This document shows, piece by piece, positions 60,501 through 64,000 of a stretch of DNA of 64,000 nt. Source of the stretch: Hirsutella rhossiliensis (Eukaryota > Ascomycota > Sordariomycetes > Hypocreales > Ophiocordycipitaceae); assembly GCF_020360975.1 (NCBI RefSeq), contig NW_025408669.1:3720001-3784000 (forward strand). Reading direction: 5' to 3'. Position numbers and translations under genes: made by a program. Each line of letters starts with the position of its first letter. Positions within the stretch are counted from its first letter, which is position 1. Below the pieces are notes generated by a model. It was not told the DNA's origin. It did not search any database and was given only the letters and a program-made list of their open reading frames with translations.

Positions 60501-63491
60501 TAAAAGCTTTACTTTAAAATAAACGCTATTTTTATCTTTATTTATATTATTATACTTATACTATTATAACTACTTACTTTACTTTATTTACTTTATAGTC
60601 TTAGCTTAAGCTACTATTAATAGTTTATTAGTTTATTATTATTACTTATTAGCTTAAATAAAGCCTTAAACTTATTAAGAGCTATACTTCTTATAAACTT
60701 ATATATAGGTTCTTATATAAGGTTAAGATACCTATACTACTTAATAAAGACCTCTTAGTATTTTCCCTTACTAACCTTTTTTTAGTACGCGGCCTATATC
60801 TCTTTAACCTTAAACTTATCTTCTTTCTTTACTTTAATTATAAGCGGTTAAGCGTCCGCTACTTCTTATTTAAGTAATAGGTTAAAGGAGGCTTAGTAAA
60901 AGAGGTCTATATTAATCTTATTATAAACCCTTATTAAAAGACTATTAAGCTTTATAACCTATAAGCTAATAACTCTTTATACTATAAACTTTATATATAG
61001 CTAGTTAAGCTTCTTCTTTAGCTATACTAACTTATAGTTATAAAGGCTTAGCTATACTTTATCCCTTACTATAAACTTATTTATTAGAGCCTTAGTCTTA
61101 TTAGTATACTACTATTAATCTTATATTATAATAGCTATTATAGATTAATAATACCCTAAAGTCTTTTATAGCTTTTATATAATAATAAAGGCATAGCCCT
61201 TTAATAATAAGTTACTATACTACTTTACTACTATATTTATAGTAAAGGGAACTAATAAGGGCGGTTTAAAGATATATATTATAAAGAAAAGGGCTATCTT
61301 AATAAAGGTATATAGTTTACTATTTAATATATATTAAGTTATAAGGACCTACTAGTTTTAGTTTACTTAGTTATAAGCTATAATAGCCTATAAGTAAGCT
61401 TATACTTCTTAGTTAACCCTCTTAAGCCCTTTATTAGTTTATAAGTAATATACTATACTAAGTAGCTATATAATCTAAAGTAGCTAGTATAAGTACTATT
61501 AAAAGTAGCTAGTTTAATTTAATTATCTATTACTTATAATAAAGGCTAGCTAGCTTTATTTATAGAACTCCTTTTAAAAGCTTTTTATTTAGTTTATCCC
61601 TTTATTTAATATAATCGACCTTAGTATCTTATAAAAGTAGAAGTAAACTTAAAGGAACCTTATTATATATACTACTACCCTTATTATTAGTATTACTTTA
61701 AGCGTTACTACTTTTATTAGCTAGTTTATAATTACTTAAAAGTACTTTATACCTTCTATCTTAGTTAGTAGTAGTTTAACTATAAAGTCTATTAATAGGT
61801 ATATAAATAGTTAGGATAGTAGTAGTAAGGGCTTTAAGAGTCCCTTTTAAACTTACCTATATATATACCCCTTCTTATATAGTCTATAGTTAGCGACGAG
61901 CCGCCTTACTATTACTAACTAGCTAGGCTAAAAGAATTCTTAGGCTAGTATTACTAGGGTCCCCTCTCTCCTTAAGTATCTTACCGCCGTTAAGTTATAT
62001 ATCTATTAAGCTATTTATACTTAAAGTATATCTTATTCTTTAGCCCCCTCTCTTTTATTATACTTTAGTTTCCTTAGTACCTATAGCCTCTCTTAAAAGT
62101 ATAACTATCTTTTAATATTAATCGTATATTTACTTAGCTATACCTTTAGTTACTATTTTAATACTAGCGATCTCTCCCTTTTATATATTACTTAAAATAC
62201 CGCTTAGTATTCCTTATCTTTTCTTAGCGCCTCTATCTATTTCTCTTATAGCTCTTAGTCGTCGAATACTAGTATAAGGTAAGCTTATTCTTAAGGTATA
62301 TTTCCGCCTAAGTTTAGGTTAAGTTTTAGTCGGTTATCGCCCTTATTTACCTTTTTCTTAGGTTATTTAACGGGCCCCCTTACTCTATTAATATACGCTA
62401 TTACGCCTACCTTTTTTCTACTTACTTATAGCGCCGCTACTACTACTTTATCTTAAGTTAAGCGTCTTAGTAAGTCGGCGTATTAGCCCTTAGCGGGGAT
62501 TAAGCGGCCTTATAAGTATATAGTCTCTAGAATTATCTAAACTACCTACCTTATCTCCTTTTTATTTATTTTGCCTACCGGCTAATCTTATTTATAGCGG
62601 GATAGCGCGTTAGGTACCGCTACTAGCCTCCTTAGCTAGAACTTTAGTATAAAGTTATAGGATATAAGCTCTATTGCTTATTAGCTTTATCTTTTATTTA
62701 ACTTCTTTTTTATTATAAAGTACCTTAGGTTATTATAGTTAGTTAGTACTATAAAGGTAGGTATATTTTAAAGTTTTACTTCTTAGAAGTCTAAGTACTA
62801 TATAATTATAAGTATCTCCTTATTATAGATTAAGTAGTTATACTTTACTAGGTTTAGTCTCTTTAAAAAGAATCCTACTAAGTATTATATACTATTTAGC
62901 CTTACTTATATTAGCGCCCCCCTTATTATATATTTAGAATAGTCCGCCTCTAAGTATATTTCTATCTTTAGGTTATAGAGTTATAGTACTAAGGCGTTAT
63001 AAAAGGCGTTCTAGATAAACTTAAACGCTACTTAATACTTATCTATCTATTTAAAGATTACGTCCTTTTTATAAAGGCTATCTAAGTATACTAATACTTT
63101 TATATAGAGTAGTATAAAGGCTTAGTAGTAGTTCGCGAAGCTAAGGAAGCTCCGGACTCCTCTTATATTCTAAGGTACCTACTATATTTATATTACTTAA
63201 ATCTTCTTTAGATTATATCGAACCTTACCCCTTACCTATATAATAAAGCCTAGGTGCTTAACCTCCTTTATTATAAAGTTATACTTCCTTAGGTTTAATA
63301 TTAAGCCCGCCTCTTATAGCTTTTAAAATACCCTTACTACCTTCTCTTAATAGTCTTAAAGAGACCCTAATAGGTAGATTAAGACGTTATTTATATACGC
63401 TATAATAAACTTATATAGGTATTCCCTTAGTACCTTATTAATATATCGTTAAAAGGTAGCTAGCGTCCCTATTAAGCTAAATAGGTATACC

Positions 63492-63564
63492 TATCGCGTA
63501 TACTATATGTGTTAATTGACGCTGTCGCTTATATCTGATAGGCGGCTATATCTTTTTCGTGATA
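63492..63564 (+). repeat. Left LTR of the miniature element
   Basis: 73 bp. It differs from the right LTR at four sites, all transitions: TA/TG at the first dinucleotide, gtg/gcg near 63510, ctgata/ctaata near 63537, and cgtgata/cgtaata at the end. Three of the four are TG/TA, the RIP type. Confidence 0.92.
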
Positions 63565-63578
63565 GTTATGAGCCCGGG
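63565..63578 (+). promoter_or_regulatory. Primer-binding site of the miniature element
   Basis: GTTATGAGCCCGGG. Its first 11 bases are the exact complement of GGGCTCATAAC, which spans the anticodon loop of initiator tRNA-Met. It is the same as the Copia site at 27316 apart from one RIP change. Confidence 0.85.
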
Positions 63579-63609
63579 CGGAGGGGTTACCCCTCCGGGA
63601 ACTTCCCGG
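63579..63609 (+). other. Two adjoining hairpins next to the primer site
   Basis: CGGAGGGG (63579-63586) pairs with CCCCTCCG (63590-63597) around a TTA loop. An overlapping alternative, CCGGGAA (63595-63601) with TTCCCGG (63603-63609), could exchange with it. Strong structure beside the primer site may matter for packaging or priming; this is inference. Confidence 0.6.
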
Positions 63610-63630
63610 TGACTACGCACGCACTTCTTC

Positions 63631-63676
63631 TGGCTAGCCTGGCGCGCACTACCCGAAAGGCCCGTGGTTCGAGTCC
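63631..63676 (+). promoter_or_regulatory. tRNA-like A and B boxes (possible Pol III promoter)
   Basis: GGTTCGAGTCC at 63666-63676 is a perfect match to the B-box consensus GGTTCGANTCC. TGGCTAGCCTGG at 63631-63642 is a fair A box (consensus TRGCNNAGYNGG, two mismatches). The gap is in the normal range for tRNA genes. The flanks do not form an acceptor or a good T stem, so it is not a functional tRNA gene. It may be a tRNA-derived internal promoter. Confidence 0.55.
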
Positions 63677-63781
63677 CGCTAGCGCAATTAAGCGCGGTTT
63701 TAGCATAGGGCCTGCCTATATAAAAATTCCCGCTATAGTCCAGGATATCTAGGTATCCCGGGACGCATTAACCCGATATCC

Positions 63782-63792
63782 CTAAGGGGGTG
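63782..63792 (+). promoter_or_regulatory. Polypurine tract of the miniature element
   Basis: CTAAGGGGGTG directly precedes the right LTR start TGTCGCG. The same junction in Copia-1, read on its coding strand, is CTAAGGGGGTA then TATCGCG, which is this sequence after two RIP changes. Confidence 0.85.
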
Positions 63793-63865
63793 TGTCGCGT
63801 ATACTATATGCGTTAATTGACGCTGTCGCTTATATCTAATAGGCGGCTATATCTTTTTCGTAATA
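63793..63865 (+). repeat. Right LTR of the miniature element
   Basis: 73 bp, from TGTCGCG to CGTAATA, followed by the second ATACC. The intact TGT start shows that the left copy's TAT is a RIP change. Confidence 0.92.
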
Positions 63866-64000
63866 ATACCTATTACTTAAATAATTTAAACCTTTTTTAA
63901 AAGGCCGTCTTAAACTTATAGCCCTTTACTATTTAGATCTTATAAAACGCTACTATAATATTAAGCTTTATAAACTACTTTACCTTCGCGAGTATCTATA

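What the first reader, a model, noticed from the sequence alone, without database searches (positions are those of the whole stretch)
63492..63865. A 374-bp miniature LTR retrotransposon with complete cis signals
Seen: 73-bp direct LTRs, 5-bp target duplication ATACC, primer site, polypurine tract and no coding capacity, inserted in frame-restorable fashion in the RT of chromovirus F. This fits the TRIM/SMART class, known mostly from plants. At 374 bp it is near the lower size limit of such elements. Whether this family is already described I cannot tell.
Basis: partly seen in the sequence, partly recalled or inferred. Interest (0 to 1): 0.88.

Follow-up and report, generated by a model that had tools for sequence, protein, structure and literature searches.

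The report
Tiny retrotransposon fused with its mobiliser
A 374-base non-coding mobile element, with 96 internal regions counted in one probably fungal genome, carries the same end, priming and strand-start signals as a full-size Ty1/copia-type retrotransposon and is repeatedly found joined to it, so it very likely spreads by borrowing that element's enzymes.

Summary
Window 63492-63865 is a 374-nt element with 73-nt LTRs, target duplication ATACC, primer site and polypurine tract. It is a mobile family: 96 internal regions and 263 LTRs by mismatch-tolerant pattern. Of the 40 best copies, 33 have perfect 5-nt duplications of 25 kinds; only one pair shares flanks. Two relatives of the host sequence show the empty site.

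(2) A full-size copia-type element shares with it LTR tips, primer site and polypurine tract. (3) The two form composites in two permutations. By coordinates nine have both junctions; the three whose ends I read each have their own duplication. They fit template switching between co-packaged RNAs.

It is a TRIM, a known kind. A perfect pol III box-B motif lies in its internal region, not in the LTR as in Helenus TRIMs. Host species, transcription and co-packaging are untested. Size is no record: 233 bp is published.

The parts
63492..63865 (+). miniature LTR retrotransposon (TRIM), 374 nt
63492..63564 (+). 5' LTR, 73 nt; starts TA where less mutated copies have TG (G to A, RIP-type)
63793..63865 (+). 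3' LTR, 73 nt; starts TG, ends TA where L044 has CA
63487..63491 (+). target duplication ATACC, left
   Evidence: single copy of the target in related sequences L014 and L036
63866..63870 (+). target duplication ATACC, right
63565..63577 (+). primer-binding site GTTATGAGCCCGG, directly after the LTR; 13-nt complement of the anticodon-stem region of the genome's initiator-type tRNA-Met
   Evidence: complementarity read by eye; form in 40 copies
63579..63597 (+). 8-bp perfect inverted repeat with 3-nt loop after the PBS; the 54-nt stretch folds no better than shuffles in L044 (z -0.79)
63631..63642 (+). imperfect pol III box A-like motif TGGCTAGCCTGG
   Evidence: likeness judged by eye
63666..63676 (+). 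pol III box B motif GGTTCGAGTCC, in the internal region
   Evidence: 1 match in the window, 0.01 expected
63784..63792 (+). polypurine tract AAGGGGGTG before the 3' LTR, shared with the full-size partner
63553..63557 (+). T5 run in the LTR (possible pol III stop; not tested)
   Evidence: 37 of 40 copies keep CTTTTTC
62400..63491 (-). C-terminal side of a stop-ridden, Ty3/gypsy-like reverse transcriptase interrupted by the element
   Evidence: translation, motifs recalled; no Pfam match over cut-off in short open pieces
63866..64000 (-). N-terminal side of the same interrupted reverse transcriptase (continues beyond the window in L063)
   Evidence: motifs recalled

Best explanation
The 374-nt unit is a TRIM, a non-coding LTR retrotransposon, that is very likely copied and inserted by the enzymes of a full-size Ty1/copia-type element in the same genome, with which it is found fused in recurrent composites. 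Shown: LTRs, 5-nt target duplications at dispersed sites, PBS and PPT sequences, the end signals shared by the two elements, composite junctions at many loci, and target duplications around the three composites whose ends I read. Inferred: an RNA running from 5' LTR to 3' LTR is packaged in the partner's particles, a fragment of initiator tRNA-Met ending in the anticodon loop primes minus-strand DNA at the PBS, the PPT primes the plus strand, and the partner's integrase inserts the product. When a TRIM RNA and a partner RNA share a particle, the growing strand would switch template at the common PBS/LTR border and yield the composites. Untested: which polymerase transcribes it.
For: Mobile family. 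Empty sites with one target copy in L014 and L036. LTRs regenerated as a pair: transversions or a 1-nt insertion relative to L044 are shared by both LTRs of a copy in L015, L027, L028, L039 and in L037/L040. PBS: directly after the LTR; 13-nt complement of the tRNA-Met at C5, 12 nt for the other tRNA-Met found. Partner: LTRs of about 450-490 nt, internal region about 5.3 kb, 40 scored matches of 1086 candidates, 5-nt duplications in 9 of the 10 copies printed; Pol_BBD in 2 and SH3_retrovirus in 1 of 17 open pieces over cut-off (their copia link is recalled), and an RVT_2 match over cut-off between the two ends of the C3 composite. Shared signals: LTR tip TGTCGCG, PBS GTTATGAGCCCGGG, PPT AAGGGGGTG. 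Composites: bigLTR-miniINT junction over the full query at 20 of 43 listed matches, the query's own place included; miniLTR-bigINT at 12 of 40, likewise; duplications ATAGT, ACTAT, ACTAA around three of them, and outer LTRs of L064 that differ by 1 transversion against 7-13 to the LTRs of seven other copies.
Against: Outer LTRs of the type I composites are not identical: in the C3 copy 2 of 73 positions differ, both in the last 6 nt, where the 5' LTR has the partner's ending; L070 is 93% with one transversion; one plain round of reverse transcription predicts identity. L064's outer LTRs also differ by 11 gap positions. No RNA or particle data. 5 of 40 TRIM copies lack a perfect duplication even after shifting two called ends by one base. 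The middle of the C3 composite was not read. RVT_2 in the L070 composite is below cut-off, and 14 of 17 open pieces of the partner gave nothing over cut-off. The genome has many other copia-type matches (1324 first-look candidates), so another family could be the mobiliser.
Confidence: 0.85

Rival explanations
1. A TRIM, but the composites arose after integration by DNA recombination between neighbouring TRIM and partner copies, so they say nothing about co-packaging.
For: The vast majority of complex LTR elements already identified are explained this way in PMC1950507 (section 4 read). Type I outer LTRs differ in the last 6 nt.
Against: Post-integration recombination should leave unmatched flanks; all three composites whose ends I read have matching 5-nt flanks (ATAGT, ACTAT, ACTAA). 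L064 outer LTRs look like one replication round (1 transversion). Both permutations recur at dispersed loci.
Confidence: 0.12
2. A pol III retroposon (SINE-like or TRIMp3): the box B in the internal region drives transcription of the element.
For: Perfect box B, 0.01 expected in the window; box A-like motif upstream; T5 in the LTR. Pol III-type TRIMs have been proposed (PMC10886601).
Against: A transcript starting near an internal box A and stopping at the 3' LTR T5 would lack 5' LTR and PBS, so it could not be the template. ARAGORN finds no tRNA in ten loci and Rfam none (one search lists three weak chance-level matches, one a tRNA-like-structure pseudoknot on the other strand, E 5.1). Box B reads AGTTCGAGTCC in 13 of 40 copies and differs otherwise in 2 more; the stretch folds no better than shuffles (z 0.64).
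Confidence: 0.1
3. A local duplication or assembly artefact.
For: None beyond the repeat itself.
Against: 96 internal regions on both strands of many contigs, 25 kinds of perfect duplication, one pair of shared flanks among 40 copies, empty sites.
Confidence: 0.01

Closest known systems
[quoted passage not shown]
   Same: Short LTRs, no transposition proteins, 5-nt duplications, copia-type relatives for some, dispersed copies, head-to-tail arrays (here C2:8053837-8054830 and C8:2159085).
   Different: Here the TRIM is joined with a full-size partner whose LTR is unlike its own outside the tips; in the passages I saw, that paper's arrays are of TRIM units.
Helenus, fungal pol III-type TRIMs (PMC10886601, parts 1-4 of 6 read)
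   [quoted passage not shown] here box B is only in the internal region and no tRNA is recognised. Helenus was found there in rusts and a few agarics.
SMART / FRetro129 with partner FRetro64 (PMC3281118, passages read)
   Same: 292 bp, 85-bp LTRs, putative copia partner with unlike LTRs but similar PBS and PPT.
   Different: FRetro129 shares a 96%-identical internal region with FRetro64; here only PBS and PPT were found in common.
Template-switch complex elements of Triticeae (PMC1950507, abstract and section 4 read)
   Same: Internal LTR, two cores, outer target duplication, near-identical outer LTRs; the authors foresee chimeric complexes from two different co-packaged RNAs and name VejuL and BARE2 as switch products.
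   Different: Their four complexes are each of one family (Angela-like, Squiq, Opie); here a TRIM and a full-size element with unlike LTRs, in two permutations.
Seven Copia-related TRIMs of Cochliobolus heterostrophus (PMC4112212, passages read)
   Same: Elements called TRIMs related to a Copia family in an ascomycete.
   Different: No composites or half-tRNA PBS mentioned in the passages I saw; the definition there is loose (lacking one or more genes).

Membership tests
TRIM | two direct LTRs flanking a short non-coding internal region, under about 1 kb | tested here: met
   (366-375 nt in 40 copies)
TRIM | target-site duplication of LTR-retrotransposon length | tested here: met
   33 of 40 perfect 5 nt
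TRIM | PBS after the 5' LTR and PPT before the 3' LTR | tested here: met
   PBS in 40 of 40 (up to 3 substitutions allowed), PPT in 39 of 40 (up to 2 allowed); tRNA match
TRIM | dispersed multi-copy, mobile | tested here: met
[quoted passage not shown]
   by sequence complementarity only; priming itself not tested; initiator identity and numbering are my reading
Copia-dependent element | a full-size Copia-type element shares the cis signals | tested here: met
Helenus (TRIMp3) | tRNA-like sequence with boxes A and B inside the LTRs | tested here: not met
   the window's only box B match lies in the internal region; ARAGORN and Rfam recognise no tRNA
SMART (grass family) | sequence homology to FRetro129 | not tested
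   no grass sequences were compared
Template-switch complex element | internal LTR, two cores, outer TSD, similar outer LTRs | tested here: met
   L064:
Template-switch complex element | identical outer LTRs in type I composites | tested here: inconclusive
   C3 differs at 2 of 73 positions, L070 is 93% identical

The most novel reading that the evidence does not exclude
The TRIM and its mobiliser form one exchanging system: the TRIM's 73-nt LTR has captured the full-size copia coding region, and the resulting composite travels as a single unit that carries its own parasite (miniLTR-bigINT-bigLTR-miniINT-miniLTR), re-releasing TRIM, partner and either permutation by choice of LTR promoter and template switch.
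Probability: 0.3. Interest if true: 0.75.

Novelty: new variant of a known kind. Interest (0 to 1): 0.55.

Why it matters
How TRIMs stay tied to an autonomous partner is called not known in PMC10886601 (part 4), and TRIM transposition is called ambiguous in PMC4717578 (section 22). Here a candidate partner is in the same genome, the signals found in common shrink to LTR tips, PBS and PPT, and fused insertions would be genomic footprints of both RNAs in one particle. That makes co-packaging directly testable by RNA and particle sequencing, and suggests how an element with unlike LTRs can still be mobilised.

Tried and rejected
SINE or tRNA gene: the box B match prompted ARAGORN on ten loci (bacterial-code setting) and two Rfam searches; no tRNA (one search gave three matches at E 3.8-9.2, below their gathering scores). 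Conserved RNA hairpin after the PBS: not clearly more stable than shuffles (z -0.79 in L044, 0.25 in the C3 composite, -1.80 in the partner L061), so no structural claim is made. Self-priming as in some gypsy elements: by eye I saw no complement of the PBS in the LTR; not computed. Internal region as a deletion of the partner: blastn of miniINT against three partner internal regions gave no match at E 1, and the whole TRIM against the C13 stretch with the partner gave, apart from the neighbouring TRIM itself, only short matches, the best of them at LTR end plus PBS and at PPT plus LTR tip, so the origin of the rest is unknown. Other fungal genomes could not be searched for the unit. Solo LTRs: 22 of the 83 zero-mismatch LTRs that I paired (of 100 listed and 263 counted) have no matching internal region within 400 nt; 8 of these form pairs 284-296 nt apart, 11 have no mate within 8 kb among the 83, and 3 of those 11 are miniLTR-bigINT junctions; none was checked for duplications.

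Full report
What is there. Window 63492-63865 (G000:C3:3783492-3783865) is a 374-nt unit with 73-nt direct terminal repeats, flanked by ATACC on both sides. The window copy is eroded by C-to-T and G-to-A changes: its 5' LTR starts TA, its 3' LTR starts TG, and both end TA. The least mutated copy, L044, lies in DNA of 51% GC; its LTRs start TG and end CA, and the two 73-nt LTRs read alike in the printed sequence (the equality test printed compared slices one base out of step and is void).

It is a mobile family. The whole unit gave 40 scored matches at 92-100% identity, itself included, out of 246 first-look candidates. An internal 31-nt pattern without CA/TG steps has 96 matches with up to 3 mismatches, 0 for the reversed control; a 35-nt LTR pattern has 263 with up to 2 mismatches, 0 for the control. 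263 LTRs exceed two per internal region by 71; composites, solo LTRs and internal regions too diverged for the pattern can account for this. In 40 copies, 33 have a perfect 5-nt duplication of 25 kinds; L037 and L040 also have one if the called end is moved by one base (read by eye), L009 has one mismatch, and L010, L025, L041 and L047 have two to five. Left flanks paired with right flanks of other copies match in 28 of 1560. Only L022 and L024 share both flanks. Two other copies of the host sequence (L014 and L036, each with its own TRIM elsewhere; L007 is the same place as L014) run through the window's site with one target copy. Relative to L044, both LTRs of a copy share a transversion or a 1-nt insertion in L015, L027, L028, L039 and L037/L040 (L010, L041 and L047 were dropped before that comparison). 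Against this, 5 of the 37 compared copies have one transversion between their own LTRs.

Primer site. Directly after the 5' LTR comes GTTATGAGCCCGG. The genome has a tRNA-Met gene reading ...GCGCGCCGGGCTCATAACCCGG... (L057, C5; ARAGORN), whose segment CCGGGCTCATAAC is the exact 13-nt complement; it ends at nt 39 in standard numbering (recalled). The second tRNA-Met (L056) pairs over 12. The initiator assignment is mine, from the sequence. In 40 copies the site reads GTTATGAGCCCGG in 11, GTTATAAGCCCGG in 24, GTTATAAGCCTAG in 4 and GTTATAAGCCCCG in 1. Priming at the anticodon loop is reported for Ty5 and Drosophila copia, and iMet is the dominant primer type in fungal Helenus TRIMs (PMC10886601).

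The partner. Next to one copy (C13:35070-35441) lies a full-size element in the opposite orientation: LTR 476 nt starting TGTCGCGAAG, then GTTATAAGCCCGGGAGG, an internal region of 5312 nt, the tract CTAAGGGGGTG and the second LTR. A 581-nt query from its internal 5' region has 40 scored matches of 1086 candidates. In 9 of 10 copies printed the ends carry perfect 5-nt duplications, and in those 9 the LTR ends in GA, not CA (L068, L072 and L076 were fetched but not printed). Of 17 open pieces searched, two gave Pol_BBD and one SH3_retrovirus over cut-off; RVT_2 and gag_pre-integrs matches were below cut-off. The C13 copy has 109-147 stops per frame. The TRIM shares with the partner the LTR tip, the PBS and the PPT; blastn of the internal regions found nothing at E 1.

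Composites. C1:1479500-1489000 (L064, minus strand) reads bigLTR-miniINT-miniLTR-bigINT-bigLTR, 6593 nt, flanked by ATAGT; its outer LTRs are 92% identical with one transversion and 11 gap positions, against 7-13 transversions to the 5' LTRs of seven other copies. C3:559086-565259, 6174 nt, reads miniLTR-bigINT at one end and bigLTR-miniINT-miniLTR at the other, flanked by ACTAA; I read only the two ends, and an RVT_2 match over cut-off with no stop lies between them. L070 has the same order, flanked by ACTAT, with a stretch before the inner LTR that does not align to the partner. A 400-nt query across bigLTR-miniINT is matched over its whole length at 20 of 43 listed places, and a 244-nt query across miniLTR-bigINT from base 1-3 to 238-244 at 12 of 40; both counts include the query's own place. 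Pairing these by place and strand gives six with the first order, type I (C3:559086, C1:9593957, C2:8060345, C10:569880, C4:5810607, C10:566525), and three with the second, type II (C1:1487084, C11:1080465, C2:825930). Type I is miniLTR-bigINT-bigLTR-miniINT-miniLTR, type II is bigLTR-miniINT-miniLTR-bigINT-bigLTR. I read the ends of three of the nine, and all three have duplications. In the three read, junctions fall at the LTR/PBS border, one of the blocks the two elements share.

Mechanism. Sabot and Schulman (PMC1950507, section 4) take an internal LTR, two cores, outer duplications and near-identical outer LTRs as marks of template switching between co-packaged RNAs, as opposed to DNA recombination, which leaves unmatched flanks. 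L064 meets all four if its RIP-type differences and the gap are set aside. The type I copies meet three: their outer LTRs differ in the last bases, where the 5' LTR has the partner's ending. I therefore infer co-packaging and template switching with the partner; this is not shown by experiment.

Pol III motif. GGTTCGAGTCC at 63666 is a perfect box B (1 match in the window, 0.01 expected) with an imperfect box A-like motif before it; 25 of 40 copies keep it, 13 have one G-to-A change and 2 differ otherwise. No tRNA is recognised. Because it lies inside the internal region, a pol III RNA from it would lack the PBS and 5' LTR, so I regard it as a relic or a binding site. Helenus has its tRNA-like sequence in the LTR, so this element is not filed as Helenus.

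Host site. Minus-strand translations on the two sides show, with many stops, motifs I recognise as Ty3/gypsy reverse transcriptase; Pfam gave no match over cut-off in ten short open pieces, only three weak unrelated ones. Chromovirus membership was not tested.

Novelty. TRIMs in fungi, anticodon-loop primer sites in TRIMs, tandem TRIM arrays and template-switch complexes are each in print. Three full-text searches aimed at fused elements (11 papers, 10 listed; 3; 5) listed no paper that I recognised, from titles and abstract starts, as describing composites between a TRIM and its autonomous partner; the library is open-licence only and subscription papers are mostly missing, so this is weak evidence. 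Five further searches were on TRIMs, half-tRNA primers and size. Size is not a record: 233 bp (PMC4717578) and 292 bp (PMC3281118).

Noticed in passing
L010 / G000:C13:35437-35460: A TRIM and a full-size partner sit head to head; the TRIM's 5' LTR is preceded by polypurine-tract letters instead of a target duplication, as if the PPT was retained at the cDNA end or the partner inserted at the PPT.
   Followed up: partly
G000:C2:8053837-8054830 and C8:2159085-2159414: Head-to-tail TRIM internal regions with a 297-299-nt period; the C2 array follows a type I composite by coordinates.
   Followed up: partly
full-size partner LTRs (L065-L067, L069, L071, L073-L075, L077): LTR ends are TG or TA at the start and GA (CGCGAGA) at the end, not CA, while the least mutated TRIM copy has TG..CA.
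   Followed up: no
G000:C1:11550828, C8:617154, C10:1881029; L079: Variants of the repeat after the PBS change both arms together (outer C..G to A..T; or both arms shortened), which would keep a stem, although folding is no better than shuffles.
   Followed up: partly
L022 and L024: Two TRIM copies share both 60-nt flanks at 92-93%, so one insertion was probably duplicated with its surroundings.
   Followed up: no
whole genome G000: Many reverse-transcriptase matches (RVT_2 1324 and RVT_1 1923 first-look candidates), some with long open frames beside stop-ridden copies.
   Followed up: no
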